From contig NZ_NEGK01000008.1 of the NCBI RefSeq assembly GCF_002135435.1, forward strand, positions 62,001 to 126,000: DNA of 64,000 bases, read 5' to 3'. A program made the position numbers and the translations under genes. Shown here in pieces: positions 9,425 to 30,278 of this stretch. Position 1 is the first letter of the stretch. Every line of letters begins with the position of its first letter. The notes under the pieces are model-generated. The model was not told the DNA's origin, made no database searches, and saw nothing but the letters and a program-made list of their open reading frames with translations. The DNA comes from Acinetobacter sp. ANC 3813. GTDB lineage: Bacteria > Pseudomonadota > Gammaproteobacteria > Pseudomonadales > Moraxellaceae.

Positions 9425-12400
9425 TTAATTTAAATTACCACCAACACCCTTAAACTTCTCAACTAAAATTGAAATTTTCTGGAAAACATTTTGTTTATTA
9501 GTCAAATACTGTGGGTTCAATGGGCTCATTTTAGGCAAAATTGCATTAAGTTCAGTGCCATTTTCACTTGCAAACTCCCTCTTCAATGAAGCCGTGATAT
9601 ATCGCTTAGTGGCGTCCTCATTCAAGTTTTCATCCTGAATCAGTTCCTGAACCTCACGCTGCTGTTCTATTTGAGCGAAAGTGTAAAAAGAATCCATCAG
9701 ACTAGCTTTATCCTCAATATTGTCTAAATCAGTATGATTAATAAAATCAACGATCAGACTTTCTTTAGATCGACTCTCCAAGCCTGAGCGAATCACACGT
9801 CGCATATCATCGACCAACGCAACTTTATCCTTGATTTTTTTATTATTTTCAAAGATAAGTTCTAAAATATAGTCTAAATTGATTTCTTGTGACTTTAATA
9901 AATCAACCTCAAAAACCACATCGTTCCAATCAATCGTAGATTTTTCTTTTTGCTCCGCTAATTGTTCCCTACGCAACCAATCACGTATATCGTTATAACT
10001 AGATCGATAGTCTTGGATTTTCCGTTCACCTGGCATATCAATTGCTGTGATCTGTGCCAACTCTTCATCATTTAAATAATGCTTATTTTTAAATTCATCA
10101 ACTGCACTAGTATCATTCAAATCAACAGTTTGTAATTCTTTTAGACTCGCATATTCATCATAGTTTTGCAGTACGTTTTCTACTCGCAAGTATTCACCAA
10201 ATAATTTAGCAAATGCCTTTTTATCTGACTCTTTAAAAATTTCATCGGGGTTAGGGAAACGTTGCTCTAACTCTTTAACTACTTCTATAAAGCCTCTTCT
10301 TGCTTCTCCAGTTAATACATCGGTGAAGCCCTCCATATATTCTTCATAGCTTTTTTCTAAAACAATATTCTGCGTATTTGGATCACCAAACAATCGTATA
10401 GCATCAATTGTCGGCTGCTCTAAATCACGAAAAGTTACGATATTACCAAATGTTTTAGTCGCATCAAAAATACGGTTAGTTCGTGAATATGCTTGTATAA
10501 GACCGTGATAACGCAAATTTTTATCGACAAATAAAGTATTTAATGTTGGTGCATCAAATCCTGTTAAGAACATACCGACCACAATCAGCAAGTCAATTTC
10601 TTTAGCTTTGACTTGCTTAGCTAAATCACGGTAATAGTTTTGGAAATTCTTAGTTTCAACACTAAAGTTCGCTTTAAATATTGCGTTATAATCTGCAATC
10701 GCTGAACTTAAAAATTCTTTGGCACTACTATTCATAGCTGATACCTCAAAACTTTCATCTTGAATATCACCCACAGCATCCTGTTCTTCATTCGCTGTAA
10801 ATGAAAATATAGTCGCTATCTTTAAAGGCTTATCACTATTTTTCTGTAAGTCTTTTAAGGATTCATAATACAACTTAGCAGCATCTACGCTACTCACGGC
10901 AAACATGGCATTAAAGCCTTTGCTACCTACTTGTAAACGATGCGTTTTTTGACGAAAGTTATGTAGGATGTACTGGCTAATTTCGTGTATACGATCAGGA
11001 TGCAATAAGGCTTGTTTATTTTCATAAGCACTCAGTTTTTTGACATCTTGTTCTTTTTCTATCATTTTAAATTGTGGGCGTACATCATTATAATCCACTT
11101 TAAATTTGAGGACTTTTTCATCACGGATCGCATCGGTGATGACATAGGCATGCAAAGCACCTCTATTTTTATTCTTATCGTAAATACCAAATACGCTAGC
11201 CGTGGTTTCATTACCTAATGTATTTTCAGGAAAAATCGGAGTTCCTGTAAAACCAAATTGGTAAAATTTTTTGAATTTTGTCTTTAAATTTTTCTGTGCT
11301 TCACCAAACTGACTACGATGACATTCATCAAATATAAACATGACTTGCTTGTTGTATATCGGCAAATAATGTTCACTTTTCATCAAAATATTTAGCTTTT
11401 GGATGGTCGTTACGATAATTTTATTATCATCTTTATCCAAGTTTCGCTTTAATCCTGCCGTACTTTCAGAACCGTTTACACTATCGGGAGAAAAACGTTG
11501 ATACTCCTTCATAGTCTGATAATCAAGGTCTTTGCGATCGACCACAAAAAAAACCTTATCAATAAAATCAAGTTCTGTTGCTAAACGCGCTGCTTTAAAA
11601 CTGGTTAATGTCTTCCCTGAACCAGTAGTGTGCCAAATAAATCCACCACTTGAAGTTTGACTCCAACTCTTGGCTTCAAATGAGCTTTTAACTTTCCACA
11701 AAATACGTTCTGTTGCCGCAATTTGATAAGGACGCATGACAAGTAAAGTATCACTTACATCAAATACGGAGTAATTAAGCAACACATTGAGTAAGGTATT
11801 TTTTTGGAAAAACGTTGCAGTAAAGTCTTTTAAGTCTTTAATGAGACTGTTATCTGACTCTGCCCAGTTCATCGTAAAATCAAAGCTGTTTTTATTACGT
11901 GATGTGGTATTCGCAAAATAGCGAGTATCTGTCCCATTTGAAATAACAAATAGTTGTAAATATTTATATAGTGAGTTTTCACTATTAAAACTTTCTTTGC
12001 TATAGCGATGGACTTGATTAAATGCTTCACGGATCGCCATACCACGCTTTTTGAGTTCAACTTGTACCAACGGCAAACCATTAACCAAAATGGTGACATC
12101 GTAACGGTTGGCATGATTACCTTTTTGTTCAAACTGTTTGATAACTTGAACTTTATTTCGAGCAATATTCTTTTTATCAAGTAAATAAATATTCTGAATA
12201 CGACCATCATCAAAAACAAAATCATGAATGTAGTCATCATGGATTTTTCTGGTTTTGTCTACGATACTATCACTTGAGTTATCCAAATATGTTTCAACAA
12301 AACGTGCCCATTCACTCTCTAAAAAATGTACATTATTGAATAACTGTAATTGCTCTCGTACATTATTCAACATAGCCTGAGCATTATTTATATTGGATAA

Positions 12401-12553
12401 AAAATCATAGCCTTGATTAGCTAAATCTTGGATGAGTTCACGCTCTAAGTCAGCTTCCGTTTGATAGCTATCTATTGCTCGAGATTCTTTAATGTATTTA
12501 TCAAGAACAATGAAATTATTCGATTCAACAATTGTTTTATTATGATCAGTCAT
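9425..12553 (-). CDS. hsdR: type I restriction endonuclease, R (motor/nuclease) subunit
   Basis: 1042-residue HsdR. Domains in order: N-terminal PD-(D/E)xK-type nuclease with [12 protein letters not shown] near residue 165; superfamily 2 translocase with Walker A (HTTGSGKT, about 310), DECH box (FIFDECHRS, about 410) and FTGTP just after; later helicase motifs (MFLTGFDAP, about 660; QAYSRTNR); and a helical C-terminal part that docks on HsdM. It moves DNA and cuts it far from the recognition site. Length and motifs are complete. It is the last gene of the operon, 10 bases after prrC. Without a working HsdM it should be inactive. Confidence 0.95.
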
Positions 12554-12563
12554 TTTATTGTTC

Positions 12564-13736
12564 CTATTGCCAATATCCGTAATTACTTACTAAGTGATTA
12601 AGAAGTAATTCCACTGTTTGCTTTTCTGGATCACTCGGCTCAGAAACTGCCATATCTGATAATGTGGAGTGACTTGTAAATTGTATAATTCGATTAAAGT
12701 AAGCTTCTTTATCACCAGGTAATAGTTCTGACCATTTTGGATAACCTAAGAAACTCGCAGTTTTTTCATACAGATTACGTAATAAAGTAAAATGGTATTT
12801 TTGAACTGTCTTTTCAGTAATTGCCTTCTCAATCGTTTCTTTTAAATACAAGTGGTAAGAAAAACTTTTATTTGAATCACCATGCTTTTCAGCCAAAGCA
12901 TAGCTACCATCTTCAAATTTCTCTAAGAGATAACAACTTTTATTTTTCAATTCATTATAAAGAACATTATAAAATAACGGGCTATGTGTAGTAATCACAA
13001 ACTTCAAATCAGATTGACTAGATTTAATTAAATTTGCCAAATTAACTGCTAATTCAATCAAATGATTTTCATCTAATGAACTGACAGGATCATCAATAAA
13101 TACATATTCTAATTCATCAAACTGATTCGTTTCTCGATCTGTTGGATCAGCAACATTTAGTATCGTAATCACTTGATCTAGCAGTGTATAAAATACACTC
13201 CAAATAAAATTACTTTCTTCACCTTTCGATATCTTAAGCGTTTCCGAGTTTTCATCATCACCACGCTCAAAAGTAAAAGTAACTTCTGTTAAATCTGCAC
13301 TAAAGCTCGGTGTTAATTTATCATTGGTATAATGTTGGAAATATTTAACAATGTTTCCATCTTGCCCCAGATCTTTCAGGAGGGTAAGCAACCAGTCTGT
13401 ATAAGTATTCGGTTGAATTTTGAGTTTGGGCTCAAAGTTCCCTTCTGAATCGTTATTCCAATAAAAAAGATCTTCTGTAAATGCGTTATAATAAAGAATT
13501 TTTTCTCGTGCATGGGATTTACCTTCACCCTCATTGCCTACAATTAGTTTATTAAACTCTCGTGATAAACGGGTTTTTCCTGTACCGTTAAAAGCATATA
13601 TCAGTTGTACCTTTGGAACTGGTTTTAATTCATCCACTTCCTTCGCTGGAATTCTCTTTTTTTCCTCTCTAACTATTTTTTTTAAAGTTATAGGCGTACT
13701 TAACTGCTTTGCTATATCGGTCAGTGTCTTACTCAT
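12564..13736 (-). CDS. prrC: PrrC anticodon nuclease (latent toxin of a type IC system)
   Basis: 390-residue PrrC-type tRNA anticodon nuclease. The N-terminal ABC-like NTPase has Walker A (FNGTGKT, 49-55), an unusual signature KGEESNF (171-177), Walker B ([12 protein letters not shown], 211-222) and H251. The C-terminal nuclease half has the triad R320, E324 and H356 at the same positions reported for E. coli PrrC, and the region [10 protein letters not shown] (286-295). In E. coli the protein is kept silent by the type IC enzyme and cleaves tRNA-Lys when phage T4 inhibits it. The gene sits between hsdS and hsdR exactly as in the prr locus. The ATG is 1 base after the hsdS stop with a weak ribosome site, which suits low, coupled translation. 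Confidence 0.93.
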
Positions 13737-13737
13737 A

Positions 13738-14979
13738 CTACACCGTTACCGTTTCAGGCTTTGGAAAACTAAGTAACAAATCACGATAGTATTCATACTG
13801 CTGTTGGCGCAGTTCAATTTCGCGAGGTAGACCTTGGGTGATTGAACTGGTTAACACATCAAATTTATCAAGAATTGAAACAATACGAGCTTGTTCATCT
13901 AGATTTTTCGGAATTTGAAAGCGGTATTCCATTATTTTGTCTTTATTTCCTCGGGGCATTTTTGCACCCTTAGCATGCTGCATGTTGTATTCGAAGAATC
14001 TCTCATCAGCTAAAATTTGATAAAGATATTTAGCGTTTACCACTTCGTCTTTTAGGCGGATCACTAGCACATCTCCGTTTGTTCCACCAATTCGATCGGC
14101 TTGCCATATTTTTTTTAAATATGGGCGAATATTTCCAATCAAAATATCGCCTTCACTATACTTAGTTAAGTTACCTGAAGTTGGCACGTAATTTGATTCT
14201 GTTTTTCCTGCTCGATTTTGCAGGAGATTATTAACACCCACATAATTTGTTTTATCAAGCAACTCATAACTAATCCGTGTTTTTGAGTACTCTGCCACTT
14301 CTTCCAAGGTCTTCCACTCAACCTCACCATCTTTAAAACTTAACAACTGCTCACGATAGTAATTATATTGTTTTTTTCTTATGTTAAGCTCGGCGGTCAG
14401 CTCAGCGGTCAGCTCGGCGGTCATAGCGCTAAGTTTATCTAAAACTTGAACAATTTCTGATTGAATTATTAGAGATTTTTTAGGATTTTCAGGACAAGGA
14501 ATGGGAATCTTAATTTTCGCTAAATCTGTTGCTGAAACATCAATCACTTTTGTCCCTTTTGCAAACTTCCTTTTTTGCTGTGCAAACGCTTCTGTTTGAG
14601 TGTAATAAGCAAAATATTTCCCAAGAATATAAGGTTTAGGTTTAAAAATTGTGGCATGTCCACCTGTTACGGCTTGTTTTTTCCCCAAGTACACTACTGC
14701 CTTGCCAACATCTTCTAAATTTTCACTGGTATTAGTAACAACAACATCACCAGTATCAACTTTTTTCAGTTTTTTTGCTGTTTCCGAAGAAACAAACGAT
14801 TTTGTTTCTATGGTTGAGAGCCCATAGTAAGTATAGATCTGCCCATAATGAATAGCTGGAACACCTGATTCAGTAAAGTCTGTTTTGGGTAACCCATTAC
14901 CTCGGACTAATTCCCCTATTTCAGCGACAGGCATCAACTCTACGATGACATCAGCCAACAGCTCTTCTAAAAAACTCAT
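13738..14979 (-). CDS. hsdS: type IC restriction-modification specificity subunit
   Basis: 413-residue HsdS with two target-recognition domains (about 10-165 and 215-350), each followed by a conserved helical spacer. The two spacers share related sequence ([16 protein letters not shown] and [17 protein letters not shown]), the circular repeat typical of type IC. The central spacer contains [12 protein letters not shown], the repeat whose copy number sets the gap in the recognition site in the EcoR124 family. The start codon overlaps the hsdM stop by 4 bases. The recognition sequence cannot be predicted by eye because the recognition domains are too variable. Confidence 0.94.
14386..14421 (-). 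repeat. three 12-bp repeats in hsdS encoding TAEL x3
   Basis: ACCGCCGAGCTG, ACCGCTGAGCTG and ACCGCCGAGCTT in tandem (minus strand). In EcoR124I/II two versus three copies change the spacer of the target from 6 to 7 bases. Three copies here predict the long-spacer version. Confidence 0.92.
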
Positions 14980-16532
14980 GCCTCACCCTCGACTTCTGCA
15001 ACAATTGCATCTATATCCTTACGAAGCTGATCAATTTTAGCTACAGTGGTTTTCAGCTCTGTATTCAATTGCACAATATCGATAACTTTACGAGTATCTT
15101 TGGCTTCGATATAACTACTCACCGACAGATTGTAATCATTAGCTTTTATCTGCTCAAAAGAGACTGACTTGGCAAAATGATCTACATTATTTTTACGATC
15201 AAACACCTGCATAATTTTATTGATGTGATCATCTGTTAAAACATTGGTATTAGTTTCTTTCTTAAAATAATCCTCACCACTTGCGTCAATAAACTGAATC
15301 GACATATCTGTCTTATGTTTTGACAACACCAAAATATTTACAGCGATGGTAGTACCATAAAACAGGTTCGGTGCAAGTGAAATTACTGTTTCCACATAGT
15401 TATTATCGACCAAATATTGACGAATTTTCTGCTCAGCACCACCACGATAGAAAATACCAGGGAAGCAAACGATTGCTGCACGGCCTTTACTCGAAAGATA
15501 GCTTAAAGCATGTAACACAAAAGCAAAGTCAGCTTTTGACTTAGGTGCAAGCACTCCTGCTGGAGCAAAGCGATCATCATTAATTAATGTTGGATCATCT
15601 GAACCAATCCATTTCACTGAATACGGTGGATTCGATACAATGGCATCAAATGGCTTATCATCAATAAAATGCGGATGATGAAGCGTGTCGCCGAGTTGAA
15701 TATTAAATTTATCGTAATTAATATTGTGCAAGAACATATTCATTCGCGCTAGGTTATATGTCGTATGATTAATCTCTTGTCCAAAAAAACCATCTTCAAT
15801 GATATGTGCATCAAAATGCTTCTTAGCTTGAAGAAGCAAAGAACCTGAACCGCATGCAGGGTCATAAATTTTATTGACATGCGTTTGATTATGCATTGCC
15901 AACTGTGCGATCAGTTTTGATACATGTTGCGGTGTAAAGAATTCACCTCCTGATTTACCTGCATTTGCAGCATAATTAGAAATCAAAAACTCATAGGCAT
16001 CACCAAATAAATCAATTTGGCTATTTTGGAAATCATCCCCAAAATCTAACGCTGCCACACCTTTTAAGACAGCAGCTAAGCGTTTATTTTTTTCAGGAAC
16101 TGAGTTACCCAGACGATTACTGGTAGTATCGAAATCAGCAAATAGGCCTTTGATATCTTTTTCTGAAGGATAATTATTGGCAGAACTTTCAATCGCTGAA
16201 AAAATTTTAGCTAAGTCAGTATTCAAGCTTTCATTATTATTGGCGCTCTTTACCAAATTACTAAAAAGTTGACCAGGTAAAATAAAATAACCTTTGGTTT
16301 TTATTGCGTCATCTTTAATCTCTGGGGTAATGACACTATCAGGCATCTCATTATATTTGATGTCTTTATCACCACCTGAAATGTAATGAGCAAAGTTTTC
16401 AGAAATAAAGCGATAAAATAGTGCACCTAAAACATATTGTTTGAAGTCCTAACCATCCACTGCGCCACGTACTTCGTTGGCAATTTGCCAAATCTGGCGA
16501 TGAAGTGCTGCACGTTGTTGGGTACTAGTCAT
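14976..16532 (-). pseudogene. hsdM: type IC modification methylase, interrupted by an amber codon
   Basis: HsdM N6-adenine methylase. The full frame runs 519 codons from ATG 16532 (AAGGAAG ribosome site) and contains the SAM motif [11 protein letters not shown] (about 222) and catalytic NPPY (about 302). Codon 28 is TAG (16449-16451): relatives read [12 protein letters not shown], here VDG[12 protein letters not shown], a TGG to TAG change. Everything after it is intact, so the loss looks recent. A restart is possible at ATG 16346 (456 residues), but it lacks the N-terminal helices that contact DNA and HsdS and has no good ribosome site. Amber suppression or a sequencing error are the alternatives. 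Confidence 0.9.
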
Positions 16533-16570
16533 TAATACTTCCTTTAAAAATCAAAACTTTAAAATATAAT

Positions 16571-16588
16571 ATCCATTAAATAATGGAT
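16571..16588. promoter_or_regulatory. palindrome upstream of hsdM
   Basis: ATCCATT-AAAT-AATGGAT, a perfect inverted repeat 40-56 bases upstream of the hsdM start and overlapping a TATTATAT-like -10 on the minus strand. It could be an operator for the restriction operon. Confidence 0.4.
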
Positions 16589-16707
16589 TGTATTTAATTG
16601 GTTGAACATTATAGCGAAATTAGTCTGTTAATAGTAATTTGAGACTGATTAGTCGAAGCCAGTTTGTTTTGTTAAATTAGCCTTTTCAACCATTCCACAT
16701 CAAATAA

Positions 16708-17106
16708 TTATTTTCTCTCCCCCTGCGCATAAGCCCATTCCGCCACCCTATGAGACCGCTCTTTATCCATTAAAAAACCTAACATTGATATCTGCTCCAC
16801 AATAATCAAATCCTGTTCTTCATTGCGCTCGTACCACTTATGCAAAAACTCATCTGATGCAAGCAAATTACTTTTCTTTGAATTACAGCTTGAATCTGCA
16901 AATACAAAATTATGCCATTTGTCAGAGGGATACATTGACCAAGGGATAAAATGATCGACGGCATAATTACCTTTTTGCATCGGCTTATTACAGTAGAAGC
17001 ATTTACAGTCTTGCAGCTCGACTAGCACACTTGCTACTGCATTCAATTAGTTTCGACTTGGCTCAAACTCATCCGAATGTTGGTTGTAATAATCTATTGT
17101 TTTCAT
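16708..17106 (-). pseudogene. HNH endonuclease fragment with a foreign start
   Basis: The lower part (17046-16708) encodes a C-terminal HNH nuclease domain: CFYCNKPM, then VDHFIPWSMYP and SSCNSKKSNLL, a CxxC/DH/N/CN zinc-and-metal site. It would have to start at TTG right after an in-frame TAA (17047-17049). Upstream of that stop the same frame begins at ATG 17106 with MKTIDYYNQHSDEFEPSRN, which resembles the start of class I SAM methyltransferases rather than an HNH protein. It looks like a deletion junction joining two defence-type genes. Activity is doubtful. Confidence 0.6.
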
Positions 17107-17498: not shown

Positions 17499-18391
17499 TC
17501 AATTCAAAGTTTGAACAGAACGCTGTAACTCATTCTGTAAATTCAAGCTTGTGGTTTTCTTTTGTTGAGCATCATCGCTGCCTTCATCAGATGGATAAAA
17601 CTCTTCAATGACGTCTAACCCATCACCTGAATCCATTTCAAAAACTGCATTTGCATAACCCTGTCTTGCCTTGTGATCTAAAGCTTCCTGATTAAAACCA
17701 CTCGATTTACTCTCTTGATCAATTTCTTTAGCAGTCTGTATAGCTTGCTTTAAATCAACGCCTTCACGTAAAGTTAAATCCACGTATACAAAGGCTGGCG
17801 ATAGCTTTGGGTCGTGGATTTACCCCGAAGAGTGAGTTGTAGCGGTAAACATGAAAGTAAACCATTCGATGCTGCATGGTAGTAGATTAGTCGTGCGGCC
17901 AAGGTCCTTATACTGTTAAAGCCAGTGGTTCTAAAGATGAATGTGCCAAGCTCATCCGATTCATCTAAATTGACATGTAGCCGTCCATAAGGCTTGCAAT
18001 TACCGCCTTGGGCCATTGAACATAAATCAGGTGATGGACATGGATGCTGTGCCACACCTTGACTAGTTAAGCGCTGGCAGGTTTCACCATTGCCGACACA
18101 AACGGGGCGTCCAGTTTGACGATCAAATAAACTATATTCGGCTCTCAAATTAAGTTCAGGATCATTGAAAATCATCCGGACTGGTATAGTTCTGAGTTTT
18201 TGGTTTTGCGCTTTCGCTCGAAGTTGTTCATCAAGTGGATGTTTCACCCAACCACTATCTTTACTTTGGATTTGACTGGTAATGGTGAACTGATCATCTT
18301 TTTCAGGCAGACGCTTGCCATTCTTTTCCACCATTCGGCCAATGCTGATTCGCCCTAAAATAGGCGGTGTTATTGCTAAACCTTTAATCAT
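17499..18391 (-). pseudogene. element protein of the 'hydrolase or metal-binding' type, frameshifted
   Basis: Two frames make up one gene of about 298 residues. The first (18391-17774) reads MIKGLAITPPILGRISIGR through GFNSIRTLAARL to QPLYTWI and stops; the second picks up as VDLTLREGVDLKQAIQTAKE (17783-17499). Relatives on plasmids and integrative elements have a continuous PxFYVDLTLR here, so one base (probably a T in the tat-tac codons) is missing near 17784. A cysteine cluster (CVGNGETC, CPSPDLC, NCKPYG) about residues 98-138 suggests a bound metal. Related proteins are sometimes annotated as recombination directionality factors; the function is not established. Confidence 0.8.
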
Positions 18392-28585: not shown

Positions 28586-29734
28586 TTAATTACACCCACC
28601 GGTAGTCCATTTATTAACTACTTCACTATACCACTCCATAATCTTTACACGCTCATCCCAATACTGTGCTCGGTTATATGCAGAACGAATGCGGTTCTGT
28701 GGCACATGGGCAAGCTGACGTTCAATTGCATCAGGATTAAACAAATTTGACTCATTTAGCACAGTACTAAATAGTGATCTAAACCCATGTGTTGTCATTC
28801 GACCTGTATAACCAGAACGTTTAATGACAGCTAAAATTGATTCACTACGCATAGGTTCTTTATTGTTTAAACGATGTGGGAATAATAGATCTTGGTTATG
28901 AGTCAAACGTAGTGCCTGAAGCTCATCAATCATCATATCTGTTAAGGGTACACGATGGGGTAAACCATTCTTCATACGCTCAGCAGGGATATCCCACTTA
29001 CGTTCTTCAAGATCAAACTCTTCCCAACGTGCTTGCAATAACTCACTTACTCGAACACCTGTAAGCATGATCAAAATAATTGCATGATGCGTTTGAGCAT
29101 CAGCAGGATAGGCTTTAATCCGTCTAAGAAATTCAGGCATTTCACTTTCAGGCAATGATGCTAAATTTTTTACTTTTTTATTCTTAAGTGCATACACCAA
29201 ATCACTGGCTGGATTGTCATATCGATAACCGTGGGCTATAGCATATTTCATCACCATACCGCATCGAGATAGCGTACGTTTAGCTACTTCAGTAGAACCT
29301 CTGGCTTCAATTTTTTTAATAACCTGCAAGATCTCAGGCGCCTGAATCTGATTGATTCGTTTATTTGCAAGTGTACTAAAAAGCTCATCCAGAGATGCTC
29401 GTACATTACTAATATGTTTGGATGACCAAGTCTCTCTTTGGTTATCAAACCAATCTTCAGCCACCTCTTTAAAAAATGGCTTGATGTCTTCGTATAAAAC
29501 TGACTTGGAATGCTTATATTTCAGTTCAAGGGCAAGCTCTCTTGCTTTCTTTAAACTCATGTCTGGATATGGACCCAGTGACTCTGACTTACGCTCACCA
29601 TGAACGGTATAGCGTACATTCCAATATTTTTGCCCTGCTGGCATCACCAGAAGCGATAGCCCATTCTCATCTGAAAGACGGTAACGCTTATCTTGTGGTT
29701 GCGCTTTTCTGCATTCTGTATCTGTGAGTTTCAT
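28586..29734 (-). CDS. P4-type tyrosine integrase
   Basis: 382 residues. N-terminal DUF4102 arm-binding domain (LTDTECRKAQPQDKRYRLSD, then GLSLLVMPAGQKYW), a core-binding domain and a catalytic domain with the expected residues: Arg in TGVRVSELLQARWEEF, Lys after it, HGFRSLF (H-x-x-R), LAHVPQN (His) and the nucleophile Tyr in SAYNRAQYW. It joins the circular element to the chromosome. Its start is about 185 bases from the 3' end of ssrA, a classical target of this integrase type. The upstream region has several TTGGGTAA/TTACCC-type repeats that may be arm sites. Confidence 0.93.
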   Translation of the reverse strand: MKLTDTECRKAQPQDKRYRLSDENGLSLLVMPAGQKYWNVRYTVHGERKSESLGPYPDMSLKKARELALELKYKHSKSVLYEDIKPFFKEVAEDWFDNQRETWSSKHISNVRASLDELFSTLANKRINQIQAPEILQVIKKIEARGSTEVAKRTLSRCGMVMKYAIAHGYRYDNPASDLVYALKNKKVKNLASLPESEMPEFLRRIKAYPADAQTHHAIILIMLTGVRVSELLQARWEEFDLEERKWDIPAERMKNGLPHRVPLTDMMIDELQALRLTHNQDLLFPHRLNNKEPMRSESILAVIKRSGYTGRMTTHGFRSLFSTVLNESNLFNPDAIERQLAHVPQNRIRSAYNRAQYWDERVKIMEWYSEVVNKWTTGGCN

Positions 29735-29919: not shown

Positions 29920-30278
29920 TGGTGGAGATGGCGGGAGTTGAACCCGCGTCCGCCAGCATTACGCTCGAGAATACTACATGCTTAGATATCGTCTATTGTT
30001 TTAACTCTTTGTGACCCGACGAACAGGGTACAAATCGCGATCCTCTAAGTTTAGTACAAAGCCCCGAGGCTTGGCTTTATACGGACTTGTGTGCGTGCGC
30101 TTCAGTCGGACTCTCTAACCACAAGTATTCGGAGAGGCGGACAAGCTGCCCTTAGGCAGCTAGAGCGTATGATTCGTCGTTTGCGACTAAAAAATGCAAA
30201 TTTGATTTACGAGAGAAAATGCGCTCTCGACATGCATCTATGAGTTTCATCACCAGCGTCGAAGCCAGAAACATCCCC
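29920..30278 (-). ncRNA. ssrA: tmRNA (ssrA)
   Basis: Transfer-messenger RNA of 359 bases, which rescues stalled ribosomes. The 5' end GGGGATGTTTCTGGCTTCGA pairs with the 3' end ...CCATCTCCACCA to give the alanine-tRNA-like acceptor, and the T-arm GTTCAACTC is present. The tag frame runs from GCA 30184 to TAA 30152 and encodes ANDESYALAA. Its 3' end is the probable integration site of the mobile element to the left. Confidence 0.97.

What the first reader, a model, noticed from the sequence alone, without database searches (positions are those of the whole stretch)
16449..16451. In-frame amber codon in hsdM: methylase broken while its toxin and nuclease stay intact
The only defect in a four-gene operon is TGG to TAG at codon 28 of hsdM. 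Without HsdM, HsdR cannot cut and PrrC loses the complex thought to keep it silent. So how does the cell tolerate an intact prrC? Options: prrC is not translated, a restart at ATG 16346 gives a working short HsdM, an amber suppressor exists, or PrrC is held by HsdS/HsdR alone. The case is a natural test of how PrrC is masked.
Basis: partly seen in the sequence, partly recalled or inferred. Interest (0 to 1): 0.75.

Follow-up and report, generated by a model that had tools for sequence, protein, structure and literature searches.

The report
Nonsense-broken methylase gene beside intact toxin
A bacterial defence cluster has lost the start of its DNA-methylating subunit to a single stop codon while the tRNA-cutting toxin that this enzyme complex normally keeps quiet looks intact: probably a recent ordinary gene loss, but a rare natural mutant that can test how the toxin is kept silent.

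Summary
Confirmed: codon 28 of hsdM (16451-16449, minus strand) is TAG in an otherwise open hsdM-hsdS-prrC-hsdR operon of the EcoprrI/EcoR124I (type IC) kind, on an ssrA-linked island in an Acinetobacter genome. All 136 close HsdM relatives examined have Trp there, none with a stop. Apart from that codon the window HsdM departs from none of 197 invariant columns: the lesion is recent, or a sequence error. PrrC keeps its Walker motif and R320/E324/H356 triad. Of 79 distinct prrC genes surveyed, 74 had an assessable hsdM; 72 were intact, the window has the only early stop, and one metagenomic contig a late one (codon 502). The opposite state (prrC broken, hsdM kept) occurs in Klebsiella plasmids and one E. 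coli. No suppressor anticodon was read near 77 tRNA matches. The restart ATG lacks a Shine-Dalgarno and would remove a segment that deletions in a related HsdM show is needed for assembly. Two neighbouring island genes are also broken. Best reading: a recent hsdM null in a decaying island, tolerated because little free PrrC accumulates (polarity, lability of free PrrC, perhaps residual HsdR binding). The tolerance mechanism is inferred, not shown.

The parts
14976..16532 (-). hsdM reading frame, interrupted at codon 28 (518 codons + stop)
16449..16451 (-). in-frame TAG, codon 28 of hsdM (Trp in 136 of 136 relatives)
16344..16346 (-). first in-frame ATG/GTG/TTG after the stop (codon 63, ATG; Leu in 123 of 136 relatives, Met in 9); no Shine-Dalgarno
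13738..14979 (-). hsdS, start overlaps hsdM stop (ATGA); strong own Shine-Dalgarno
12564..13736 (-). prrC, 390 aa, begins one base after the hsdS stop (TAG-T-ATG); Walker A G53-K54-T55 and triad R320, E324, H356 intact
9425..12553 (-). hsdR, 1042 aa, EcoR124-type, complete
16533..16640 (-). hsdM leader with AAGGAAG Shine-Dalgarno and a TATAAT-like box (by eye); consensus promoter scan is at chance level
16689..17067 (-). decayed HNH gene just upstream (C-terminal third of a 335-aa plasmid relative, in-frame stop and frameshift)
17499..18391 (-). Gp3-like island gene split into two frames by a one-base deletion near 17780; one open frame in eight same-genus stretches
28586..29734 (-). tyrosine integrase of the island, beside tmRNA
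29920..30278 (-). ssrA (tmRNA), probable integration site of the island (attachment repeat not found)

Best explanation
A recent loss-of-function (nonsense) allele of hsdM in an island-borne type IC operon with an embedded PrrC anticodon nuclease. SHOWN: the stop, its absence from the relatives examined, open flanking operon genes, intact PrrC catalytic residues, no sign of long neutral decay in the operon, no amber-suppressor anticodon read. INFERRED: no functional HsdM is made, so the system neither methylates nor restricts (HsdR cannot act without M2S: recalled knowledge). The cell tolerates prrC mainly because little free PrrC accumulates: the stop leaves about 1.5 kb of the first cistron untranslated (nonsense polarity and loss of hsdM-hsdS coupling lower everything downstream), free PrrC is short-lived, and HsdR may still bind part of it.
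For: TAG confirmed, Trp in 136 of 136 relatives. No other invariant HsdM column is changed; by simulation at most about 0.74% neutral substitutions have accumulated since. Nonsense in hsdM recurs in the genus: 4 of 59 matches. Two neighbouring island genes are also broken, so the island is losing genes. The restart codon is poor and the short product lacks a needed segment. hsdM-hsdS overlap ATGA and hsdS-prrC TAG-T-ATG are arrangements for coupled translation; EcoKI hsdM-hsdS is described as translationally coupled (PMC3510504 abstract and passages). Core PrrC half-life under 1 minute without Hsd (PMC3014915 passages). The PrrC target is present: the tRNA-Lys(ttt) anticodon loop is the ordinary CTTTTAA.
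Against: hsdS has a strong own Shine-Dalgarno (-8.5) and prrC a moderate one (-5.6), so loss of coupling may be incomplete. Promoter-like and terminator-like sites are no more frequent than in shuffles. No RNA or protein data. A prrC+ hsdM-null is nearly unique in the survey, which would be odd if such alleles were harmless; but the sample is small and many records are clonal. The window PrrC also departs at 4 of 101 columns that are at least 90% conserved and 2 of 108 at 95% (range in 43 sequences 0 to 13), not unusual but not zero.
Confidence: 0.5

Rival explanations
1. Sequence error or minority base: the real or majority base gives Trp and the operon is an ordinary intact EcoprrI-type system.
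For: Everything else in HsdM is conserved at invariant columns, as an error in a live gene would look. A one-base deletion also splits a neighbouring gene about 1.3 kb away, which could be decay or a second error. Reads are not held.
Against: The assembly looks good overall (3.86 Mb, 21 contigs, 100% complete). No printed row of the pilT control in the genus has a stop, while 4 of 59 HsdM matches do.
Confidence: 0.2
2. PrrC is made at normal level but is held silent by HsdR (or HsdS with HsdR) without any HsdM.
For: A review states that PrrC antiserum precipitates HsdR (PMC3014915 passages). hsdR and hsdS are open here and HsdR shows no excess decay. hsdS has its own strong start signal.
Against: I saw no direct test of HsdR alone in the passages read; paper searches cover open-licence papers only. 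Of 74 assessable prrC operons 72 keep an intact hsdM, as if the whole complex were needed.
Confidence: 0.18
3. Translation restarts at ATG 16346 and the 456-aa HsdM works.
For: The frame from codon 63 is open and keeps the whole N6_Mtase domain. Met at codon 63 is rare in relatives (9 of 136).
Against: No Shine-Dalgarno (-1.5). Lacks residues 1-62, in which 27 of 62 columns are invariant. Deleting residues 1-40 or 1-50 of T. tengcongensis HsdM abolished a stable complex with HsdS (PMC3047542; mapping approximate).
Confidence: 0.05
4. The TAG is read through (suppressor tRNA or high natural readthrough) and enough full-length HsdM is made.
For: HsdM shows no decay at invariant columns besides codon 28.
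Against: aragorn read no CUA anticodon in the stretches around the 77 tRNA matches; the first look scored 150 of 284 candidates. TAG ends 7 of 40 window ORFs checked, among them prrC and hsdS.
Confidence: 0.04

Closest known systems
EcoprrI-PrrC of E. coli (prrABCD, type IC R-M with anticodon nuclease)
   Same: Gene order hsdM-hsdS-prrC-hsdR (PMC3014915 passages); PrrC of similar size with R320/E324/H356 (triad numbers from PMC2610378 passages); EcoR124-type HsdM and HsdR
   Different: hsdM has a stop at codon 28; host is Acinetobacter, locus on an ssrA-linked island; recognition sequence unknown
EcoR124I/II (type IC R-M without prrC)
   Same: HsdM aligns end to end with the solved EcoR124 HsdM (7bst_D, residues 1-516 to 3-515)
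   Different: EcoR124 lacks an anticodon nuclease (PMC3014915 passages) and has a complete HsdM in the solved structure
Acinetobacter prrC operon in G025 (L242)
   Same: Same order; hsdM 86%, prrC 67%, hsdR 84% identical
   Different: No stop in any of the four matches; Trp at codon 28; Leu at codon 63
Klebsiella plasmid operons with broken prrC (L287, L290, L298)
   Same: Same operon type with one member lost
   Different: Mirror image: prrC broken by frameshift or insertion, hsdM intact
RloC anticodon nuclease
   Same: ABC-ATPase plus the same nuclease triad (PMC2610378 passages)
   Different: RloC has a zinc-hook coiled-coil insert; the window protein is PrrC-sized (390 aa) and hits the PADLOC PrrC model at 7e-144

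Membership tests
PrrC anticodon nuclease | ABC ATPase motifs and ACNase triad Arg-Glu-His | tested here: met
   G53-K54-T55, D215-D216, R320, E324, H356 conserved; PADLOC PrrC 477 bits. No NCBIfam model matched it and Pfam gave only AAA_13
PrrC anticodon nuclease | gene embedded in a type I hsd operon, between hsdS and hsdR | tested here: met
   the same order in relatives
PrrC anticodon nuclease | cleaves tRNA-Lys when unmasked | not testable with these tools
   only the presence of an ordinary tRNA-Lys target was checked
Type IC R-M system (EcoR124/EcoprrI family) | HsdM, HsdS and HsdR of this family | tested here: met
   TIGR00497 hsdM, EcoR124_C and HSDR_N in HsdR, two Methylase_S domains; 7bst_D E=5e-280
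Type IC R-M system (EcoR124/EcoprrI family) | translatable full-length HsdM | tested here: not met
   TAG at codon 28: filed as a mutated member, not a working system
Type IC R-M system (EcoR124/EcoprrI family) | methylates and restricts a bipartite site | not testable with these tools
   needs a methylome and plating tests

The most novel reading that the evidence does not exclude
Masking of PrrC does not need the methylase: in this natural hsdM-null, PrrC is made and kept latent by HsdR (or HsdS plus HsdR), so the guard has been uncoupled from modification and the cell keeps a toxin-only defence.
Probability: 0.12. Interest if true: 0.65.

Novelty: new member of a known kind. Interest (0 to 1): 0.38.

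Why it matters
Which Hsd subunit silences PrrC, and what happens when the complex is lost, rests (in what I could read) on overexpression and extract work with the E. coli locus. A wild strain with intact prrC, hsdS and hsdR but no HsdM would be a ready-made test. The survey adds that in 72 of 74 assessable prrC operons hsdM is intact, while the reverse loss (prrC gone, hsdM kept) was seen in Klebsiella plasmids and one E. coli: a direction of loss expected if the R-M complex protects the cell from PrrC.

Tried and rejected
Amber suppressor: none read. Second hsdM copy that could complement: HsdS domains occur only at C7 and C20; the C7 HsdM is 782 aa and is not among matches at E <= 1e-100 to this HsdM (one search gives one match in G000), so rejected as a substitute (inference). 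Two weak N6_Mtase matches at C15 and C21 were not looked into. RNA repair as tolerance: no RtcB match in the genome. Altered PrrC target: tRNA-Lys loop ordinary. Internal promoter or terminator: counts equal those of shuffles. Relaxed constraint in prrC or hsdR: no excess seen. Island ends: the 20-base tmRNA 3' end occurs once in the genome, so the attachment repeat was not found. Phage records: no PrrC match at E <= 1e-30 in 50,697. No solved PrrC relative at E <= 0.001. Control that failed: a UvrD-like protein in the genus showed many 'stops'; printed rows with a stop still have open frames of 680 aa or more, so I put them down to my query starting too far upstream and did not use it. Two 'broken prrC' flags (L129, L260) are stops before the true start and were set aside. 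L277 was flagged with two stops but its prrC match has none. In one search the window HsdM also departs at 3 of 110 columns that are at least 97% but not fully conserved.

Full report
WHAT IS THERE. The minus strand from 16532 to 9425 carries hsdM, hsdS, prrC and hsdR, tightly packed. The frame from ATG 16532 meets TAG at 16451-16449, codon 28. With X at that codon the frame is a complete HsdM of 518 residues: HsdM_N 10-157, N6_Mtase 172-481, TIGR00497 631 bits, and an end-to-end match to the solved EcoR124 HsdM 7bst_D, E=5e-280. HsdS, PrrC and HsdR hit their families. The operon lies on an island with a tyrosine integrase beside ssrA/tmRNA, AlpA, a YqaJ exonuclease and DUF932. The genus is Acinetobacter: two loci from same-genus genomes (L215, L219) are contained, base for base, in named A. 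tjernbergiae and A. gerneri loci (L006, L008).

IS THE STOP REAL AND HOW OLD. Relatives were taken: 143 loci, of which 7 distant ones (under 60% identity) were dropped and 136 kept, three of these cut short. Residue 28 is Trp in 136 of 136, none has an in-frame stop in its match, and the window departs at none of the other 197 invariant columns. It does depart at 3 of 110 further columns that are at least 97% conserved. The way loci are ranked favours full-length copies, so the lack of stops among them is biased. With a larger deduplicated set (158 relatives, 182 invariant columns, codon 28 included) the only departure is again codon 28. About 26% of random substitutions in hsdM would be visible at those columns or as new stops, so none seen bounds neutral change since the lesion at about 11.5 substitutions, 0.74% of sites. 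PrrC departs at 0 of 54 invariant columns (69 relatives) and HsdR at 2 of 319; 22 of 133 HsdR relatives depart by as many or more. At looser thresholds PrrC departs at 4 of 101 columns (90%) and 2 of 108 (95%; the 43 sequences range from 0 to 13). The lesion is therefore recent, or an error, or HsdM is still made.

NEIGHBOURS. Two island genes directly upstream are broken as well. The HNH gene at 17067-16689 is the C-terminal third of a 335-aa Acinetobacter plasmid protein, with an in-frame stop and a frameshift. A Gp3-like gene (17499-18391) is split by a one-base deletion near 17780: a copy elsewhere in the same genome (L211) and eight same-genus stretches align across the break, and the two window pieces lie in different frames. 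This speaks for an island that is losing genes, though two of these lesions are small enough to be base-call errors.

BASE RATES. In 175 genomes of the genus, 59 HsdM-family matches at E <= 1e-100 include 4 with an in-frame stop: this one and G138, G072, G160. Those three genomes have no PrrC match at E <= 1e-20. None of the rows printed for a pilT control has one (169 of 175 genomes matched, printed list truncated, protein of 345 aa). hsdM nonsense thus looks like a recurrent loss rather than mainly assembly noise, but raw reads would still be needed for this base. In E. coli, where few hsdM copies have prrC beside them, 280 of 1,700 records with a match to an E. coli type IC hsdM hold no place covering 80% of it (some are merely distant or cut by record ends), and 19 of the 60 rows printed list an IS within the hsdM-hsdS span, none of the 6 prrC-bearing rows among them.

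THE prrC SURVEY. From and the window, 96 loci carry prrC (some only 33-34% identical), 79 of them distinct by the first 200 aligned residues. 'Intact' hsdM means one match from codon 30 or earlier to 480 or later without a stop, so lesions at the very ends could be missed. hsdM: 72 intact, 2 with a stop, 5 not found; in those five prrC starts within 1 kb of the contig's first base. So 72 of 74 assessable are intact. The two are the window (codon 28) and L256, a metagenomic contig with a stop at codon 502 and open prrC and hsdR. In a related HsdM the last 10 residues are dispensable and the last 21 are not, so L256 cannot be judged. No assessable locus had prrC without hsdM. The reverse state was found: L287 frameshifted prrC, L290 prrC interrupted by an insertion, L298 prrC split near its 5' end by an IS5-type element, all with hsdM intact (L290 counted as a duplicate of an intact Klebsiella copy in the distinct set). 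In E. coli, 21 of 5,426 genomes hold prrC-like DNA. In 15 of these a place spanning hsdM and prrC lists hsdM as one gene, and one representative (L284) of 5 near-identical others has hsdM as one gene. The last, EH2252, keeps annotated hsdM and hsdS at 99.6% identity, but its span is 2,894 bases where the query has 3,975, so most of prrC is deleted. I read this as a direction of loss, with the caution that Klebsiella and E. coli records are clonal and numbers are small.

Restart at ATG 16346: it is the first in-frame ATG, GTG or TTG after the stop; its best anti-SD energy is -1.5 (true start -6.1; median of 153 ATGs in the operon -2.1). The product loses residues 1-62. In T. tengcongensis HsdM, deletions of residues 1-10 and 1-30 still gave stable complexes, but 1-40 and 1-50 did not (PMC3047542 section 14 read in full; other passages); the mapping between the two proteins is approximate. 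Suppressor: 77 tRNA matches, all covered by fetched stretches, no CUA, UUA or UCA anticodon. TAG ends 7 of 40 window ORFs. Not translated or not masked: still open. hsdS begins inside the hsdM stop (ATGA) and prrC one base after the hsdS stop. EcoKI hsdM-hsdS translation is described as coupled (PMC3510504, abstract and passages). Nonsense polarity is recalled knowledge. Against full silence, hsdS has a strong Shine-Dalgarno of its own.

WHAT IS KNOWN OF FREE PrrC. I read passages of PMC3014915: PrrC is thought latent through association with EcoprrI; antiserum to PrrC precipitates HsdR; prrC induced from a multicopy plasmid without other prr genes gives active core nuclease with a half-life under 1 minute at 30 C. 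Passages of PMC11555353: a Klebsiella prrC (35% identical to EcoPrrC) under pBAD arrests growth and targets tRNA-Lys, while the four-gene cluster cloned under its native promoter protects against phages T1 and T7. Passages of PMC2610378 give the triad and the silencing model; passages of PMC12707154 describe PrrC as a guard of R-M. The primary papers of 1990 and 1992 are not held. In the listings I recognised no study of a natural hsdM-null with intact prrC; these searches cover open-licence papers only. So free PrrC at native dosage need not be lethal, and a broken hsdM with intact prrC is less paradoxical than the finding supposes.

VERDICT. The most likely story is ordinary: a recent hsdM null in a known system on an island that is losing genes, tolerated because little free PrrC accumulates. 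What lifts it above ordinary is rarity (the only early stop among 74 assessable operons) and testability. The most novel reading not excluded is that HsdR or HsdS silences PrrC without HsdM.

Noticed in passing
window 16689-17067 (-): HNH gene directly upstream of hsdM is a decayed relic: only the C-terminal third of a 335-aa Acinetobacter plasmid protein (L300), with an in-frame stop and a frameshift near its end.
   Followed up: partly
window 17499-18391 (-): Gp3-like (recombination directionality factor-like) island gene is split by a one-base deletion near 17780; a copy in the same genome (L211) and eight same-genus stretches align across the break.
   Followed up: partly
window hsdM codons 49-61: Five of the window's eleven private HsdM residues fall in 13 codons between the stop and the restart ATG (p about 0.003 by a crude mutability weighting; among 46 other sequences with four or more private residues one, L132, has six). 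The stretch also varies in same-genus copies while codons 44-47 and 50 keep their conserved residues, so this is not plain neutral decay; unexplained.
   Followed up: partly
L256:5228-6772: Second prrC operon with a stop in hsdM, at codon 502, in a metagenomic contig; prrC and hsdR open, with about 4 kb between prrC and hsdR.
   Followed up: partly
L289 and L290 (Klebsiella pneumoniae isolate 147, two assemblies): Two plasmid assemblies bearing the same isolate name: prrC intact in one and interrupted by an insertion in the other, hsdM intact in both.
   Followed up: no
L282-L298 (E. coli and Klebsiella): Several prrC operons lie next to terminase, Phd/Doc and 3'-phosphatase genes (L282, L283, L293) or directly after a DUF262 gene (L284, L288, L292, L298).
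   Followed up: no
L211 (G000 C7:58000-70000): Second type I system (HsdM 782 aa, HsdS 458 aa) lies about 5 kb from a gene 92% identical over 77 residues to the island's Gp3-like gene, suggesting a related island elsewhere in the same genome.
   Followed up: partly
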